From positions 1 to 64,000 of the forward strand of contig DJPR01000034.1 of assembly GCA_002438605.1 (NCBI GenBank): a stretch of 64,000 nucleotides of DNA, written 5' to 3'. This DNA is from Ruminococcus sp. UBA6407. GTDB taxonomy: Bacteria > Bacillota > Clostridia > Oscillospirales > Ruminococcaceae. The notes beneath the pieces were generated by a model. It did no database searches and was not told the DNA's origin. It saw only the letters and a list, made by a program, of their open reading frames with translations. Positions within the stretch are counted from its first letter, which is position 1. Every line of letters starts with the position of its first letter. Of this stretch, positions 9,816 through 29,529 are shown one piece after another. Position numbers and translations under genes: made by a program.

Positions 9816-10253
9816 ATGAAAATTTCAACAAAAGGAAGATATGCATTAAGGATGGTCGTTGACTTAGCCGAGCATCAGCATGAAGAATTTACATCTTTAA
9901 AAGATATAGCTGAGCGTCAGGGGATTTCAAAAAAATATCTTGAACAAATTGTGCCATTGCTCAACAGAAACGGAATACTCCGTACAAACAGAGGCAATAA
10001 GGGTGGATACAGACTTGCCAAAGCTCCGGAAAACTATACAGTTGGAGATATTCTTCGTGCAACTGAGGGTTCATTTGCACCTGTAAGCTGTTTGGAATAT
10101 GAAACAAACGAATGTCCGAGAGCAGATTCATGTACCACTCTTTATATCTGGGAGGGACTTTATAAAGTGGTCAATGAATATTTTGATGGTATTACAATTC
10201 AGGATATTTTAAATCATAACAGTGATTTGAACGGCAACGATTACTGCATATAA
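9816..10253 (+). CDS. Rrf2-family transcriptional regulator (CymR/IscR-like)
   Basis: Small winged-helix regulator: MKISTKGRYALRMVVDLA opens the family domain and the recognition region is ISKKYLEQIVPLLNRNGIL. Three cysteines at about residues 88, 96 and 102 (SCLEYETNECPRADSC) resemble the Fe-S ligand set of IscR, whereas the Bacillus cysteine repressor CymR lacks such a cluster. Its neighbour is cysK (convergent), not the isc genes, so a cysteine/sulfur role is likely; Fe-S sensing is possible. The start follows AAAGGAG by 7 bases; 145 aa is typical. Confidence 0.88.
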   Translation: MKISTKGRYALRMVVDLAEHQHEEFTSLKDIAERQGISKKYLEQIVPLLNRNGILRTNRGNKGGYRLAKAPENYTVGDILRATEGSFAPVSCLEYETNECPRADSCTTLYIWEGLYKVVNEYFDGITIQDILNHNSDLNGNDYCI

Positions 10254-10320: not shown

Positions 10321-11247
10321 TTATTCAAACATAGGCGTGGAAAGATAGCGTTCTCCTGTATCAGGAAGAAGTGCAACAATAGTTTTTCCTTTGTTTTCAG
10401 GACGTTTTGCAAGCTGAATTGCTGCCCAAACTGCTGCACCTGATGATATACCGACAAGCACACCTTCTGTTCTTGCAATGTTTCTGCCAATCTTAAAAGC
10501 GTCTTCATTTTCAACAGGGATTATTTCGTCATAAATTTTTGTATTTAAAGTTTCGGGAACAAATCCTGCACCAATTCCTTGGATTTTATGAGGTCCTGCA
10601 ACACCCTCTGAAAGAACAGGTGAACTCTTGGGTTCTACAGCAACTACTTTCACATCAGGATTTTGTGACTTCAGATATGCTCCGACACCACTTATTGTAC
10701 CACCTGTACCAACACCTGCAACAAAAATGTCTACCTTGCCGTCAGTATCTTTCCAAATCTCAACACCTGTTGTTTTCTGATGAACAGCAGGATTAGTCGG
10801 ATTGGTGAACTGTGACGGAATAAAGCTGTTTGGAATTTCCTCAGAAAGCTCCTTAGCTTTGGCAATTGCACCTTTCATGCCCTTTGCACCATCAGTTAAA
10901 ACAAGCTCTGCACCATAAGCTTTCATAAGATTGCGTCTTTCAATGCTCATTGTTTCAGGCATTGCAATAATAAGGCGGTAACCTCTTGCAGCAGCCACAG
11001 AAGCAAGTCCTATGCCTGTATTGCCGCTTGTCGGCTCAATAATAACACTGCCTGGTTTAAGTAAACCTTTAGCTTCTGCATCATCAATCATGGCTTTGGC
11101 AATTCTGTCCTTAACTGAACCTGCCGGATTAAAATATTCAAGCTTAGCAAGAATAGTTGCTTCAAGCTGATTGGCATGTTCAATTTTTTCAAGCTCCAAA
11201 AGAGGGGTATTGCCAATAAGCTCTGTAATTTTCTTATAAATTTTCAT
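10321..11247 (-). CDS. cysK: Cysteine synthase A (O-acetylserine sulfhydrylase), first copy
   Basis: PLP enzyme making cysteine from O-acetylserine and sulfide. K46 in NPAGSVKDR binds [14 protein letters not shown] is the substrate loop and GTGGT the phosphate loop; 308 aa is standard. A close paralogue lies at 28443-29372. The gene is alone, convergent with the Rrf2 regulator, and its promoter region has AACCTAT and GGTAT elements like those of the sulfur block. The start has a GGGAG site 10 bases upstream. Confidence 0.95.
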
Positions 11248-23452: not shown

Positions 23453-24364
23453 TCAAATATATAAGTTTTTGCTGAAATAACGATCTCCTCTATCGGGAAG
23501 TATGACTACAATATTTCCTGTTGCACCTGATTTTATAAGTTTTTTTGCTGCTGCCAAAGCTCCGCCTGATGATGAACCGGCGAAAATACCCTCCTTTTTT
23601 GCCAATTCTCTTGAACTGCCGAAAGCATCATCATCCGTTATTTTTATAACTTTGTCAACGAGTGACATATCCATTGTATCAGCTATAAAGTCATTACCAA
23701 TTCCTTCAATATTGTAGTCGCCGTGTTCGCCGCCGCCCATCGTAGAACCGATAGGATCGGCAAGTATTCCATTGATTTTAGGATTTTTTTCTTTCAAATA
23801 ACGCATAATTCCGCTGTATGTACCGCCGCTCCCAGCTCCGGAAACCAAATAATCAATTTTTCCGTCGAGTGCAGAGTATATTTCAGGACCTGTGGTTTCA
23901 TAATGAGCGAGCGGATTTGCGGGATTTTCAAATTGTTTTAATGAAACAGCACCGGAAATGGATTCCTCCAATTCTTTTGCTTTTGCCGATGCACCCAGCA
24001 TACCGTCCTCTCTCGGAGTATTTATTATTTCAGCCCCTAGCGCTCTCATAAGTGTTTGCTTTTCCTCAGAAAACTTTGTAGGCACAACAAAAATTACACG
24101 ATAACCTTTATTTAGTGCGGCAAATGCGATACCGAGTCCGGTATTTCCCGCTGTTCCTTCAATAATCGTTCCTCCCGGTTTCAGAAGTCCCTTTTTTTCT
24201 GCATCAGCAATCATATACTTGCCGATTCTGTCTTTAACGCTGCCCGACGGATTATATAGTTCGAGCTTTGCAAAAACATTTACGCTTTCCGGAAAACCCA
24301 AATTATTTAATTTGACAAGCGGTGTATTTCCAATCATATCCTGCATTGAATTATAATATTGCAC
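23453..24364 (-). CDS. mccA: O-acetylserine-dependent cystathionine beta-synthase (MccA/YrhA-like)
   Basis: PLP enzyme of the cysteine synthase fold, expected to join homocysteine with O-acetylserine to form cystathionine. K44 in NPSGSVKDR binds PLP, with GTAGNTGLG and GAGSGGTYSG loops. The loop GTAGN instead of the TSGNT of CysK, plus pairing with mccB and luxS, favours MccA over a third CysK. The start is GTG 3 bases after the mccB stop, with GAGG 8 bases upstream. The 303 aa length fits. Confidence 0.8.
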   Translation of the reverse strand: MQYYNSMQDMIGNTPLVKLNNLGFPESVNVFAKLELYNPSGSVKDRIGKYMIADAEKKGLLKPGGTIIEGTAGNTGLGIAFAALNKGYRVIFVVPTKFSEEKQTLMRALGAEIINTPREDGMLGASAKAKELEESISGAVSLKQFENPANPLAHYETTGPEIYSALDGKIDYLVSGAGSGGTYSGIMRYLKEKNPKINGILADPIGSTMGGGEHGDYNIEGIGNDFIADTMDMSLVDKVIKITDDDAFGSSRELAKKEGIFAGSSSGGALAAAKKLIKSGATGNIVVILPDRGDRYFSKNLYI

Positions 24365-24367
24365 AAC

Positions 24368-25525
24368 TTATTCCTCACTTTCTTTTATCGCTTGACTGAT
24401 ATCTGCAAGAATATCATCAATATTCTCAATTCCGATGGAAAGTCTTATAAGTCCATCGGTTATACCAACCTTTTGTCTGATTTCATACGGAATAGAAGCG
24501 TGCGTCATACTTGCGGGATGGCATACAAGTGATTCGACACCGCCCAAGCTTTCAGCAAGAGCAACCAATTTCAATGAAGAGAAGAATTTCTTTATATCAT
24601 AGTTGGGGTAAAGCTCAAACGAAATCATTGCACCGCCGTTTTTTGCTTGACGCTTATTTATTTCATATCCTTGTGCATTCGGAAGTCCGGGATAGTATAC
24701 ATTTTTTACAGCTTTATTATTTTTAAGATACTCTGCGGCTTTTTCGGCATTTGACACGTGACGATCCATACGCACACCAAGTGTTTTTATTCCTCTGATA
24801 AGGAGGAATGAATCAAATGGGCCTAAAATACCACCTGTTGAGTTTTGAATAAACGCTAATCTTTCGGCAAGTGTACTGTCTTTTACAACAACAAGTCCTG
24901 CAACAAGGTCGCTGTGACCGCCGAGATATTTTGTGGCACTGTGTATAACTATATCAGCACCGAGATTAAGCGGTCTTTGAAGATAAGGTGTCATAAAGGT
25001 GTTGTCTACAATAGTAAGAATGTTATGCTTTTTCGCAAGGCGTGAGATTGCCGAAATATCAGTAATTGTCAAAAGCGGATTAGCTGGACTTTCTATTAAA
25101 ACAGCTTTTACATCAGATGTGATTTTACTGTCTAAGGAGTCTATATCCGTTGTATCTTCTATTGAATATGTAATATTAAAATTATTAAATACCTTATCAA
25201 GCACACGGAAGGTTCCGCCGTACACATTGCTTGATATATTAATTTTGTCCCCAGTCTTAAAAAGGCTCAAAACTGCTGTGATAGCAGCCATACCTGAACC
25301 AAAGGCAAAACCGTTTGTTCCGTCCTCAAGCTCGGCAATCAAGCTTTCAAGTGCCGCTCTTGTCGGATTTCCCGTTCTTGAATACTCCCATTCAGGCGTA
25401 CCGCCGAGTTCTCTTTGCTCATAAGTTGAGGTTTGATATATTGGAACATTAACCGCTCCCGTATATTTATCACCGTAAATTCCACCGTGTATCAAAGTCG
25501 ATTCAATATTTTTATAGTTTGCCAT
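24368..25525 (-). CDS. mccB: Cystathionine gamma-lyase / homocysteine lyase (MccB-like)
   Basis: PLP-dependent transsulfuration enzyme that would cleave cystathionine to cysteine, 2-oxobutyrate and ammonia. The PLP lysine is in HSATKYLGGHSD; SGMAAITAVLSLF and ESPANPLLTITDI are family motifs. With mccA next and luxS before it, the lyase direction is much likelier than cystathionine gamma-synthase, though sequence alone does not exclude the latter. Start at 25525 after GAGAGG (spacing 9). About 385 aa. Confidence 0.82.
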   Translation of the reverse strand: MANYKNIESTLIHGGIYGDKYTGAVNVPIYQTSTYEQRELGGTPEWEYSRTGNPTRAALESLIAELEDGTNGFAFGSGMAAITAVLSLFKTGDKINISSNVYGGTFRVLDKVFNNFNITYSIEDTTDIDSLDSKITSDVKAVLIESPANPLLTITDISAISRLAKKHNILTIVDNTFMTPYLQRPLNLGADIVIHSATKYLGGHSDLVAGLVVVKDSTLAERLAFIQNSTGGILGPFDSFLLIRGIKTLGVRMDRHVSNAEKAAEYLKNNKAVKNVYYPGLPNAQGYEINKRQAKNGGAMISFELYPNYDIKKFFSSLKLVALAESLGGVESLVCHPASMTHASIPYEIRQKVGITDGLIRLSIGIENIDDILADISQAIKESEE

Positions 25526-25554
25526 AACCAAATACCTCTCTTTCTTAAAATAAG

Positions 25555-25635: not shown

Positions 25636-26097
25636 TTATTCTGCATAAACCATATCAGCCTCTGTTTTTTCTGATAATACATTCAGCATATCGGCAGCAA
25701 TTCCTTTTGCGCCCAATAAATCGTGTTCTTTATAGTTGCCGCATTCCTGCCGCTTGCTTCCCGGAATTTCCCCTTCAAAATTCACGATAAACTCAAAAGT
25801 TTTTCGGACAAGTGACAGAGCCTCCGACTTTTTTACATTACTGCGGAGCAGCAGATAAAATCCCGTTCGGCATCCCATAGGACCTACATAAATAACGCTG
25901 TCGGTATATTTCGAATTTCTCGCATAGGTTGCAAAAAGATGTTCAAATGTATGTAGTGCACCGTTTGAAATATAGTCGCCGTTATTTGGCTTTTTCATTC
26001 TTATATCGTAAGTGTATATATCGCCGTCAATGCGGGAAACATACATACCTTTTTCCAGCTTGTCGTGGTTTACGGTAAAGCTTGCAATCTTTTTCAT
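25636..26097 (-). CDS. luxS: S-ribosylhomocysteine lyase (LuxS)
   Basis: Splits S-ribosylhomocysteine into homocysteine and the AI-2 precursor. Metal ligands are visible: H49-T-F-E-H53 and C119 in [10 protein letters not shown], with catalytic C76 in [12 protein letters not shown] at 26097 (MKKIASF) overlaps the metK stop as ATGA, so translation is coupled; the longer in-frame ORF reaching 26151 is inside metK. Length 153 aa. Here it more likely serves homocysteine recycling to cysteine than signalling, since mccB and mccA follow. Confidence 0.96.
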
Positions 26098-28190
26098 TTT
26101 ATTTTTCCTGCCTTTTCTCTTAAAATTCCCGCTAAATCCGTCTTTTCCCAAGGAAAAGTAATATCTTTTCTGCCGAAATGTCCGTAGGCGGCTGCTTCTT
26201 TATATATAGGCTGCCTTAAATTCAATTTATCAATAATTGCTCCCGGTCTGAAGTCTATTGTTTCGGTTACTATTTTTTGAATATCAGAATCGGGGATAAT
26301 GCCTGTCCCGAATGTGTTGATATATACCGAAACCGGTGCGGCAACACCGATTGCATAAGCAATCTGAATTTCTGCCTTTTTGGCGAGGTGAGCGGCAACG
26401 ATATTTTTTGCCGCATATCTTGCCGCATATGCGGCACTTCTGTCAACCTTTGTTGGGTCTTTGCCCGAAAAGGCTCCGCCGCCATGGTGAGCGCTTCCGC
26501 CATATGTATCAACGATTATTTTTCTTCCCGTAAGTCCGCTGTCGCCGACAGGACCTCCGATTACAAACCTCCCTGTTGGATTTATCAGTATCTTTGTTTC
26601 TTTACTTAAAAGTTTTTCGGGGATAACGGGTGTTATCACCTCACGGATAATGTCCTCCCGTATCTGATCCTGCGATACATCGGGATTATGCTGCGTTGAC
26701 ACCAAGACGTTATCTGCAAAGACTGCCGTATCATTCTCATACCTTATCGAAACCTGTGTTTTTCCGTCCGGACGCAAGTATGGCAATGTGTTATTTTTTC
26801 TCACCTCCGAAAGCCTTTTTGCAAGACTGTGTGCAAGGGAGATTGCAAGAGGCATATATTCTTCCGTTTCATCACTGGCATAGCCGAAAACCATTCCTTG
26901 ATCGCCAGCTCCCGTTTCTGCCTTTGTATCAAAATTTCTTGTTTCAAGGGCATTATTTACTCCTTGCGCTATATCGGCAGATTGTTTATCCAATCTGACA
27001 ATAATCTCAACACTGTGTGAATCAAAACCAAGCTCCGAATGATTGTATCCGATTTTATATATGGCATTTCGTACCGTTTGTTCAATATTGATGGTTGCCG
27101 AGCTTGAAATTTCTCCGGCTAATATTACGGTATTGTTTTTGACCATTGTTTCCACTGCCGTTCTTGCGTTTTTGTCTTTTTCAAGATAAGCGTCTAATAT
27201 GGAGTCCGATATAATGTCGCTTACTTTGTCGGGGTGCCCCTCTGTTACTGATTCCGATGTAAAAATAAATGTATTCATTTTTTGTTTCTCCTCTCTGACT
27301 GCTGATATAAAATGTATATTTTCAAAGGCTTTTTGACCATCTGTACGACCGTCAAAATATTTTTGCTGTATTATTTGCGGTGTTTCGTGTATATCTGTTT
27401 TGTATTTGTATTTTTTAAGCACCTCCGAAATTTCTTTTACCGAATATCCGTGAAGCATCGGTTCGCCGAGTTTTTCGGTTATCAATGCAAGCTCTTTCGT
27501 TCGTTTTTCCGCCTTTGCCGAAAAAGTAGTTTCATCGGGAAAATCAAAAACTACTTCGCTTTCCGCTGATGAAAGATTTGCAATCTTTGCGATTGTATCT
27601 TCAAAGGTCGAAAGAGTAAGATAATAGGTTACACCAAGTATGGCAAAGAAAGTTGGAATTTGTCTGTTAAATCCGTATCGTATAAGTGCTTTTTCCATAC
27701 TGTCTTTTGCAAAATCAACAGGAACGAAACGAACATTGTCTGGAATAATCCATTCAAGCTCCTTGATTTTATCTTTTTTATATTTTTGCGTATTCGGATG
27801 GTCTAGTTCAAACACTTTTATATTCGGATTTGTATTCCGAAAAGAAAAGGTGTCCATTCCGGCTCCGCAAATTACATATTGAATTTCTTTATGTTTTTTT
27901 GCAAACTCATTCAGCCGTTGTTCAGTAAAAGCCGCTCTCGACAATGGAATAGGAGCTATATAGTCAGAAATGCTACTATTTATTATCTTTCTGTCAAAAG
28001 CCTTATCGGGATTGTATTTTTCTGGCATGAATCCATTTTCAATAAGCTGCCCGGCTTCTTCATATTCTGTTTTTCCCATCATATCAAACGCAAGGTAATC
28101 ATCAAAAATTTTGTCCTTATCAAAATTTGAATGATAAGCTCTTGCAAATGAGCAAAGCTTTGCGGTGATGCTTTCCATTGTATCTTTCAT
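26094..28190 (-). CDS. metK: In-frame fusion: SAM-dependent methyltransferase - S-adenosylmethionine synthetase (MetK)
   Basis: One uninterrupted frame of 698 codons. Residues 1-304 are a class I methyltransferase of the leucine carboxyl methyltransferase/PPM-like group, with SAM motif [14 protein letters not shown] and VFELDHP. Residues 305-698 are a complete Met[44 protein letters not shown]. MetK makes SAM from methionine and ATP; the methyltransferase would turn it into SAH. The MetK part has its own ATG (27278) with GAGGAG (27288-27293) 9 bases upstream inside the linker, so a free MetK may also be made. The first start (28190) follows AAAGGAG. The neighbours luxS, mccB and mccA continue the path to cysteine. 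The methyl acceptor is unknown. Confidence 0.88.
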
Positions 28191-28211: not shown

Positions 28212-28243
28212 AAAAAAATCCGCCCATGAAATTCACGAGCGGA
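28212..28243 (-). terminator. Attenuator terminator in the leader of the metK operon
   Basis: Minus strand: TCCGCTCGTGA, ATT, TCATGGGCGGA (11 pairs, two of them G-U), then seven T residues. It stands between a Cys-rich leader ORF and the first structural gene, 22 bases before the start codon, where a plain terminator would block the operon. The 5' arm CCGCTCGT can instead pair with ACGAGTGG at 28297-28304 (eight pairs, one G-U). Confidence 0.85.
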
Positions 28244-28273
28244 ATACCTTTATTCTATATAAACATCTGACTG

Positions 28274-28411
28274 TTATATATAACAAAAAAGCCGTACCAC
28301 TCGTTTTTGACAGCAAGCGATACAGCAGCAATTATTTTTACGCATAGCAGCAAAGCCGTATTCTGCGGCTTTTGTCAAATATACAGTTGAAGAAAATATT
28401 GAGTTCATCAT
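28274..28411 (-). CDS. Cys-rich leader peptide of the metK-luxS-mccBA operon
   Basis: A 45-codon ORF (second ATG at 28408) between cysK and the attenuator terminator. Codons 28-34 (28330-28310) read Cys-Cys-Cys-Ile-Ala-Cys-Cys, and one more Cys is codon 43. A shorter start, M23 (MRKNN then the Cys run), is possible. The ribosome-binding site is weak (GCAGGGA, 7 bases away). A ribosome stalled on the first Cys codons would leave ACGAGTGG (28297-28304) free to act as antiterminator; completed translation would cover it. CGGCTTTT (28287-28294) can also pair with AAAAGCCG (28366-28373), a classical 1:2 element. There is no room for a promoter after cysK, so the leader is probably co-transcribed with cysK. 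The ORF is inferred, not proven to be translated. Confidence 0.72.
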   Translation of the reverse strand: MMNSIFSSTVYLTKAAEYGFAAMRKNNCCCIACCQKRVVRLFCYI

Positions 28412-28442: not shown

Positions 28443-29372
28443 TTAATCTGCAAACATTGGTGTGGAGAGGTATCTTTCTCCGGTATCGGGCAAAAGAGCC
28501 ACTATAATTTTCCCTTTATTTTCGGGACGCTTTGCAAGCTCTGTTGCGGCATAAACCGCAGCTCCGGAAGATATTCCGACAAGCAAGCCTTCTTTCCTTG
28601 CAAGAGTTCTGCCTGTTTCAAAAGCGTTTTCATTTTCAACGGTAATGATTTCATCATAGATGTCTGTGTTAAGAGTATCCGGCACAAAGCCTGCTCCGAT
28701 ACCTTGTATTTTATGCGGTCCGGGAGTACCCTTTGATAAAACAGGGGAGCCTGACGGTTCTACCGCAACAATTTTGACATTCGGATTTTGTGATTTTAAG
28801 TATTCGCCAACACCCGACAATGTACCGCCCGTGCCTACGCCTGCAACAAATATATCAACCTTGCCGTCCGTATCTCTCCAAATTTCAGGGCCCGTTGTGC
28901 TGCGGTGTGCAGCAGGGTTTGCCGCATTTGTAAACTGACTAGGAATAAAGCTGTTTGGTATTTCAAGTGCTAATCCCTGTGCTTTGGCAATCGCACCTTT
29001 CATTCCTTTTGCACCCTCGGTAAGAACAAGCTCCGCTCCGTATGCCTTTAATAGATTTCTGCGTTCAACACTCATCGTTTCGGGCATTGTTAAAATAATT
29101 CTGTAACCTCTTGAAGCAGCGACCGCCGCAAGACCAATTCCTGTGTTTCCGCTTGTCGGTTCAATAATGACAGAGTCGTGGGTTAAAATTCCTTTAGCTT
29201 CAGCATCATCTATCATAGCCTTTGCAATTCTGTCTTTAACGCTTCCCGCCGGGTTAAAATACTCAAGCTTTCCGTATATTGACGCTTCAAGCTTATTTTC
29301 TTTTATATAGTTATTTAGCTTCAACAGCGGAGTTTTTCCTATTAAATCAGTTATTTTTTCGTATACCTTCAT
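28443..29372 (-). CDS. cysK: Cysteine synthase A, second copy
   Basis: O-acetylserine sulfhydrylase with K46 in [20 protein letters not shown] and GTGGTLSG; 309 aa. It is strikingly similar to the copy at 10321-11247 along its whole length but is richer in G+C by eye. It begins the run cysK-leader-metK-luxS-mccB-mccA and has a promoter with a CCTAT/ATAGG box. Sulfide and homocysteine routes to cysteine are therefore expressed together. Confidence 0.95.
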
Positions 29373-29404: not shown

Positions 29405-29452
29405 CTATTGCTGTAAATTACCCCAACATCGTTTGCAAATAAGAATCTGCAT
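29405..29452 (-). CDS. Putative 15-residue leader peptide of cysK
   Basis: ATG with a good GAGGTGG site 6 bases upstream opens a frame encoding MQILICKRCWGNLQQ, ending 32 bases before the cysK start. It has two Cys in CKRC, next to a gene for cysteine synthesis. No terminator follows it, so any control would be translational. It might equally be chance. Confidence 0.4.
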   Translation of the reverse strand: MQILICKRCWGNLQQ

Positions 29453-29480
29453 TTTGTACCACCTCGTAATATCTATAATT

Positions 29481-29529
29481 CCTATTTATTTTATAGGTTT
29501 TATTATATCACATTTTTTGAATTTGTCAA
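29481..29529 (-). promoter_or_regulatory. Promoter of the cysK-metK-luxS-mcc region with a CCTAT-N7-ATAGG box
   Basis: Minus strand: TTGACA (29524-29529), 16 bases, TATAAT (29502-29507), then AACCTATAAAATAAATAGG (29481-29499) across the expected start of transcription. The position suggests a repressor site. The leader to cysK is about 120 bases. Confidence 0.75.

What the first reader, a model, noticed from the sequence alone, without database searches (positions are those of the whole stretch)
28212..28411. Candidate cysteine-responsive ribosome-mediated attenuator ahead of a methionine-to-cysteine operon
Seen directly: a 45-codon ORF with the Cys codon cluster Cys3-Ile-Ala-Cys2 (28330-28310), then an 11-pair terminator with seven T (28243-28212), then the ribosome-binding site and first gene. 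ACGAGTGG (28304-28297), right after the Cys codons, can pair over 8 positions with the terminator 5' arm CCGCTCGT (28242-28235). Next to it CGGCTTTT (28294-28287) can pair with AAAAGCCG (28373-28366). This is the 1:2, 2:3, 3:4 scheme of amino-acid attenuators. Known: Cys-rich leader ORFs act this way in mycobacteria. Inference: low Cys-tRNA stalls the ribosome early in the Cys run, freeing the antiterminator, so SAM-SAH-homocysteine-cysteine conversion is switched on.
Basis: partly seen in the sequence, partly recalled or inferred. Interest (0 to 1): 0.93.

Follow-up and report, generated by a model that had tools for sequence, protein, structure and literature searches.

The report
Cysteine-sensing leader switch in Ruminococcus
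In an uncultured relative of the bacterium Ruminococcus, a short gene rich in cysteine codons and a predicted transcription stop signal sit just before genes predicted to turn methionine into cysteine, and this layout, which recurs in related species, would likely let the cell read through the stop only when cysteine runs short.

Summary
Observation confirmed base for base: a 45-codon leader with Cys3-Ile-Ala-Cys2, an 11-bp terminator with T7, then LCM-methyltransferase/MetK, LuxS and MccB/MccA-like genes. Comparison supports a real cysteine attenuator: 48 of 49 other same-genus genomes with this methyltransferase have a Cys-cluster leader plus terminator before it, as do two close MAGs; 4 of 9 genomes outside the genus have the Cys leader. 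Among 274 other genes in these loci none has 4 or more clustered Cys; 32 of 41 methyltransferase genes do. Own antiterminators beat swapped ones (5 of 20,000 permutations reach). One arm is corrected: the Cys codons themselves pair with the antiterminator arm (13 bp). A modelled ribosome on the first Cys codons raises antiterminator pairing from 0.12 to 0.72 in the window; the main genus group shows no such contrast. The same genome has a T-box before cysE-cysS whose specifier reads UGC but no Rfam match in the window, so it likely reads Cys-tRNA by two unrelated devices. I found no printed Cys attenuator in Clostridia. Known kind, new family; no expression data.

The parts
28274..28411 (-). 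Leader ORF, 45 codons, MMNSIFSSTVYLTKAAEYGFAAMRKNNCCCIACCQKRVVRLFCYI
   Evidence: Cys run unchanged in L033 and L034
28310..28330 (-). Control codons Cys-Cys-Cys-Ile-Ala-Cys-Cys
   Evidence: modelled stalling on the first three frees the antiterminator arm
28314..28326 (-). Segment 1: part of the Cys run, 5' arm of a 13-bp hairpin
28291..28303 (-). Segment 2: 3' arm of the Cys-run hairpin, followed by six T (28290-28285)
28297..28304 (-). Antiterminator arm ACGAGTGG, overlaps segment 2
   Evidence: (L033 homologue)
28235..28242 (-). CCGCTCGT, segment 3: terminator 5' arm that the antiterminator captures
28212..28243 (-). Predicted intrinsic terminator (stem 28243-28219, T7 28218-28212); stem sequence changes but pairing is kept in L033 and L034
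28366..28373 (-).
28443..29372 (-). cysK, cysteine synthase, 31 nt before the leader; no terminator-like site in between, so probably cotranscribed (inferred)
26094..28190 (-). First controlled gene: LCM-family methyltransferase fused in frame to MetK (698 aa)
25636..26151 (-). LuxS, S-ribosylhomocysteine lyase (first start codon of the frame; true start may lie inside)
24368..25531 (-). MccB-like cystathionine gamma-lyase/homocysteine desulfhydrase (best NCBIfam model, 555 bits, below its 594 cut-off)
23453..24364 (-). MccA-like PALP enzyme (cystathionine beta-synthase type by context; below NCBIfam cut-offs)

Best explanation
This is a leader ORF with a run of cysteine codons and a predicted terminator ahead of a predicted methionine-to-cysteine operon, and it likely works as a ribosome-mediated attenuator that reads the supply of cysteinyl-tRNA. 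Shown by sequence and comparison: the leader, the terminator-like hairpin, complementarity of one segment both to the Cys codons and to the terminator 5' arm, and recurrence of leader plus terminator in relatives. Predicted by folding, window type: with no ribosome, or one just past the Cys run, the Cys codons pair with segment 2 and the terminator can form; with a ribosome held on the first three Cys codons segment 2 is free and captures the terminator 5' arm before its 3' arm is made. Inferred: lack of charged tRNA-Cys holds the ribosome, transcription runs on into methyltransferase-MetK, LuxS, MccB and MccA, and methionine sulfur goes to cysteine. In the window the switch lies after cysK and would gate only the methionine branch.
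For: 48 of 49 other same-genus genomes with the methyltransferase have a Cys-cluster leader ORF before it: 35 of 36 in the first set and 13 of 13 in a fresh set; each of the 48 has a terminator-like hairpin. Outside the genus 4 of 9: G090, G270, G360, G442. Control: 7 of 274 other genes have 3 clustered Cys and none 4 or more, against 37 and 32 of 41. Own against swapped antiterminators: 5 of 20,000 permutations reach. Modelled A-site scan: 0.72 on Cys codons 28-30, 0.09 on the last Cys, 0.02 at the stop, 0.12 with no ribosome; L033 and L034 alike. Five main Cys columns kept in 44-48 of 48 leaders, both TGT and TGC in use at four of them. No Rfam family at gathering score in the window or 20 related loci.
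Against: No expression data. 22 genus-group representatives: modelled antiterminator already forms without a ribosome; stalling raises it by more than 0.05 in 1 and lowers it in 1; a ribosome at the stop lowers it in 11 and raises it in 3. L127 shows no contrast either, and L126 only a weak one. The 1:2 swap test is weak (1,045 of 20,000). L071's terminator and antiterminator are not convincing. Codons 44-45 of the window's scan also give 0.72 and 0.67 with one footprint. The leader's Shine-Dalgarno is weak in the window. One genus locus, L060, lacks a leader in the 147 nt before its contig end.
Confidence: 0.83

Rival explanations
1. The leader stalls the ribosome through its nascent peptide or thiol chemistry and senses something other than charged tRNA-Cys.
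For: In the genus group the end of the leader is kept as YAQRCC (Q 46, R 46, A 47 of 48) and nearly as DNA.
Against: That motif is absent from the window, L033, L034, L071, L125, L126 and L127 leaders, which share little more than clustered Cys codons.
Confidence: 0.07
2. The ORF encodes a functional Cys-rich small protein and the terminator is an ordinary one.
For: Cys-rich short peptides can bind metals or be modified (general knowledge).
Against: Peptides differ between lineages except for Cys; none of seven tested matches NCBIfam and the window's none in Pfam; the antiterminator swap test is not expected of a coding-only feature.
Confidence: 0.04
3. Control is at the promoter by an Rrf2/CymR-like repressor; the leader and terminator add little.
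For: One clear Rrf2 protein, in this window at 9816-10253 beside a second cysK; ATAGGAAT lies after a promoter-like site before cysK and in the 420 nt before the gene in 33 of 36 genus loci. The box as CymR-like is recalled.
Against: ATAGGAAT is at chance frequency in the window (4 found, 3.5 expected); the protein is below both the CymR and IscR cut-offs; it leaves the Cys codons and pairings unexplained. The two layers are compatible.
Confidence: 0.04
4. A chance Cys-rich ORF beside an ordinary terminator after cysK.
For: The terminator scan alone is not above chance.
Against: Conservation in 48 of 49 genus genomes and the control set.
Confidence: 0.01

Closest known systems
uORFC-8-2 motif before cysS in Rhodobacterales (PMC8632094, passages read)
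   Same: Short ORF with tandem Cys codons inside the first stem, then a terminator; predicted Cys-tRNA attenuator.
   Different: Alphaproteobacteria, controls cysS, two Cys codons; sequence relationship to the window not tested beyond the Rfam scan.
Cys-run leaders of Mycobacterium, Propionibacterium and Bifidobacterium (PMC1262725, passages; Canestrari 2020, title only)
   Same: Runs of Cys codons in a leader before cysteine genes.
   Different: There the Cys run is near the stop codon and no conserved terminator hairpin was found; here an intrinsic terminator and antiterminator are present.
Cys T-box (and S-box plus antisense RNA) of ubiG-mccBA operons in Clostridium (PMC2940859, passages)
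   Same: Same kind of operon, methyltransferase with mccB, mccA and sometimes luxS; premature termination relieved by cysteine lack.
   Different: T-box binds tRNA directly; none reaches the gathering score here. The methyltransferase here is of the LCM family.
trp/his-type attenuators of enteric bacteria (general knowledge)
   Same: Four-segment logic with control codons in segment 1.
   Different: The stop codon lies after segment 2, so a terminating ribosome sits between the antiterminator arms; segment 2 is followed by its own run of T; in the window the device lies inside an apparent operon, after cysK.

Membership tests
Ribosome-mediated amino-acid attenuator | Translatable leader ORF with a run of codons for the regulated amino acid | tested here: met
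   translation itself not shown, and the window's Shine-Dalgarno is weak
Ribosome-mediated amino-acid attenuator | Intrinsic terminator between leader and first gene | tested here: met
   predicted
Ribosome-mediated amino-acid attenuator | Antiterminator that excludes the terminator and covaries with it | tested here: met
   swap test 5 of 20,000 over 23 clusters
Ribosome-mediated amino-acid attenuator | Segment 1:2 pairing that sequesters the antiterminator when the ribosome does not stall | tested here: inconclusive
   clear in the window type; weak in the swap test and without effect in the genus-group model
Ribosome-mediated amino-acid attenuator | Controlled genes act in the pathway of that amino acid | tested here: met
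   by homology
Ribosome-mediated amino-acid attenuator | Readthrough depends on tRNA charging | not testable with these tools
   needs an experiment
T-box | Match to RF00230 at the operon | tested here: not met
   none at gathering score in the window; own-genome matches lie on other contigs
SAM (S-box) riboswitch | Match to RF00162 at the operon | tested here: not met
   the only own-genome match is before the other metK on contig C9

The most novel reading that the evidence does not exclude
Ruminococcus and kin read charged tRNA-Cys with two unrelated RNA devices in one genome: a T-box on cysE-cysS and, on the methionine-to-cysteine operon, an undescribed family of ribosome-read attenuators in at least two designs. 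In the window type the Cys codons are the 5' arm of a first terminator inside the leader (13 bp plus six T), so untranslated transcripts end at terminator 1, well-fed ones at terminator 2, and only a ribosome waiting for Cys-tRNA lets polymerase pass. In the genus type the default is open and a translating ribosome closes it.
Probability: 0.35. Interest if true: 0.78.

Novelty: new member of a known kind. Interest (0 to 1): 0.66.

Why it matters
In Firmicutes amino-acid sensing at the RNA level is usually assigned to T-boxes; PMC1262725 (passage) states that no aminoacyl-tRNA-synthetase gene there was known to use classical attenuation. Here one genome carries a T-box before cysE-cysS with a UGC specifier and, on its methionine-to-cysteine operon, a leader with the anatomy of a ribosome-mediated attenuator. 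That sets up a natural comparison of two sensors of the same signal. It also suggests why the operon carries its own MetK: the other metK has an S-box, which would shut it when SAM is plentiful, while this one would answer to cysteine (inference).

Tried and rejected
Rfam families at the operon: none at gathering score. Copies of the genus motif TATGCTCAGCGATGTTGC elsewhere: ten non-operon places from the listing were fetched; the script found the motif in eight of these loci, six within an open frame unlike a leader, two unresolved; other listed places were not read. Own-genome search for TGY3-N6-TGY2 gave 20 places, the window's one among them; the rest were not followed up. Consensus fold of 35 genus leaders gave mainly the terminator and one long-range helix and was not used. 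A promoter-like site on the + strand inside the leader (28307-28335) was not pursued.

My own errors, found on checking: loci from the genome search are not turned to the match's strand. therefore read minus-strand loci the wrong way round (superseded). One search did so for L127, L128 and L130 (redone: L127 does have a leader). Searches did so for five T-box loci (redone: one T-box precedes cysE, which I had first missed). One search's MetK query was in the wrong frame (redone). In one search the four zeros are L055, L072, L073 and L074; L055 does have a leader but missed the Shine-Dalgarno filter, and L060 was left out for its short upstream.

No Cys attenuator in Clostridia showed up in the paper searches; these cover open-licence PMC papers only.

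Full report
What is there. On the minus strand cysK (29372-28443) is followed after 31 nt by a 45-codon ORF (28411-28274), a predicted terminator (28243-28212), a ribosome-binding site and a long gene at 28190. That gene is an LCM-family methyltransferase fused in frame to MetK; LuxS, an MccB-like and an MccA-like enzyme follow. The set suits the route methionine, SAM, SAH, S-ribosylhomocysteine, homocysteine, cysteine (pathway knowledge). No SAH nucleosidase gene is in the operon; two PF01048 proteins lie elsewhere in the genome, their substrate undetermined. The closest named records are MAGs titled Clostridiales bacterium SUG1531 and uncultured Ruminococcus sp. RUG14314.

The pairings. RNA 28331-28212 folds at z -6.47 against shuffles. 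Part of the Cys run (28326-28314) pairs over 13 bp with 28303-28291, which is followed by six T. The antiterminator arm ACGAGTGG (28304-28297) overlaps that 3' arm, so the two pairings exclude each other.

Ribosome scan. The transcript up to the terminator loop was folded with a ribosome-sized stretch held unpaired (codons from 22 on). In the window, pairing of the terminator 5' arm with the leader is 0.72 with any of the first three Cys codons in the A-site, 0.33 and 0.09 on the last two of the run, 0.00-0.08 on codons 35-43, 0.02 at the stop and 0.12 with no ribosome. Codons 44-45 give 0.72 and 0.67 with one footprint, 0.39 and 0.00 with another. L033 and L034 behave alike; in L034 it is 0.6 or more only on codons 28-32. 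L125 goes the same way (0.69 against 0.17), L126 weakly (0.34 against 0.09). The 22 genus-group representatives do not: with no ribosome the arm is already paired (0.68-1.00), stalling adds more than 0.05 in 1 and takes away in 1, and a ribosome at the stop lowers it in 11 and raises it in 3. L127 is like them (0.75 with none, 0.76 on its first Cys codons). For these the scheme needs a ribosome lying between the arms, which the model does not represent, so that step is inferred.

Relatives. In the genus 50 of 125 genomes, own included, have the methyltransferase at E <= 1e-60. I read all 49 others: 36 first, 13 later as a fresh set. A short ORF with at least three Cys in 12 residues lies before the gene in 35 of 36 and 13 of 13, and each of these 48 has a terminator-like hairpin before the gene. 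The exception is G036/L060, whose contig ends 147 nt upstream and whose sequence there is unlike the others. All 36 loci of the first set have mccB and mccA next in order. mccB is found in 52 of 125 genus genomes: the 50 plus G004 and G067. Three methyltransferase homologues at 33-37% identity (L072-L074) have no mccBA beside them and no such leader.

Outside the genus. 10 of 394 order genomes have the gene, own included. Of the nine others, G090 (L071/L128), G270 (L126), G360 (L125) and G442 (L127) have a Cys-cluster leader with a Shine-Dalgarno-like sequence; the five at 32-38% identity do not, though L133 has a longer ORF with three scattered Cys and no Shine-Dalgarno. In L071, L125 and L126 the leader follows cysK. 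MccB lies in the fetched flank of L125, L127 and L128 but not of L126 or the five without leader. By eye, L125 pairs ACAGGTGGCTT with AAGCCGTCTGT and L126 pairs ACAGGCGG with CCGCCTGT.

Controls. Before 274 other long ORFs in the same loci the test with a Shine-Dalgarno filter gives 3 clustered Cys in 7 and 4 or more in none; the methyltransferase genes give 3 or more in 37 of 41 and 4 or more in 32 of 41 (zeros named). Own against swapped antiterminator energy over 23 clusters at 85% identity: -18.57 against -16.72, sd 0.46, reached in 5 of 20,000 permutations (L071 left out beforehand, L125-L127 not yet in the set). The parallel 1:2 test is weak, 1,045 of 20,000. In 48 genus leaders the five main Cys columns hold Cys in 44, 47, 48, 46 and 44, with both TGT and TGC at four of the five.

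Other sensors in the genome. No Rfam family reaches its gathering score in the window or in 20 related loci. The genome has 9 T-box matches, 5 over the cut-off, and one S-box, before the other metK on contig C9. The first long frames after 8 of the 9 T-boxes are a radical SAM protein, valS, a TrpB-like enzyme, leuA, thrS, cysE, trpE and alaS. The T-box before cysE (87.9 bits, cut-off 93) shows GAAG-UGC at the specifier position (alignment, read by eye), and cysS follows cysE. So this genome likely reads Cys-tRNA by a T-box at cysE-cysS and by ribosome position at the methionine branch.

Against the literature. In C. perfringens and C. botulinum the equivalent ubiG operon has a Cys T-box; in C. 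acetobutylicum a T-box, an S-box and antisense RNA take part (PMC2940859, passages). Cys-codon attenuators are described before cysS in Rhodobacterales (PMC8632094, passages) and as leaders in Actinobacteria (PMC1262725, passages). Seven paper searches showed none in Clostridia, within open-licence papers.

Verdict. A real, conserved device of a well-known class and an apparently new family. The mechanism is strongly suggested by anatomy and comparison; the cysteine response is untested.

Noticed in passing
26094-28190 (-); L033:885-2972; L034:6001-7200: Methyltransferase and MetK form one open frame in the window and in L033; in L034 the methyltransferase is followed directly by MetK residues from about 227 on, so its MetK looks shortened.
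   Followed up: partly
G000 contig C9:124748-126089 (L002, L142): A second MetK, 58% identical, is the only gene found with an S-box in this genome; the operon's MetK has none.
   Followed up: partly
G000 contig C34:29659-29851 (L139): T-box with an apparent UGC (Cys) specifier before cysE and cysS in the same genome.
   Followed up: partly
9816-10253 (+) and 10321-11247 (-): Rrf2-family regulator (below both CymR and IscR cut-offs) next to a second cysteine synthase gene.
   Followed up: partly
29405-29529 (-): Before cysK: promoter-like TTGACA (29529-29524) and TATAAT (29507-29502), ATAGGAAT (29485-29478), then a 15-residue ORF MQILICKRCWGNLQQ with two Cys (29452-29405); the box resembles one before the genus-group leaders.
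   Followed up: no
3' part of genus-group leaders, e.g. L042: TATGCTCAGCGATGTTGC (YAQRCC) is kept almost letter for letter, beyond what Cys codons need; by eye it can pair with sequence just before the terminator in L041 and L059. Role unexplained.
   Followed up: partly
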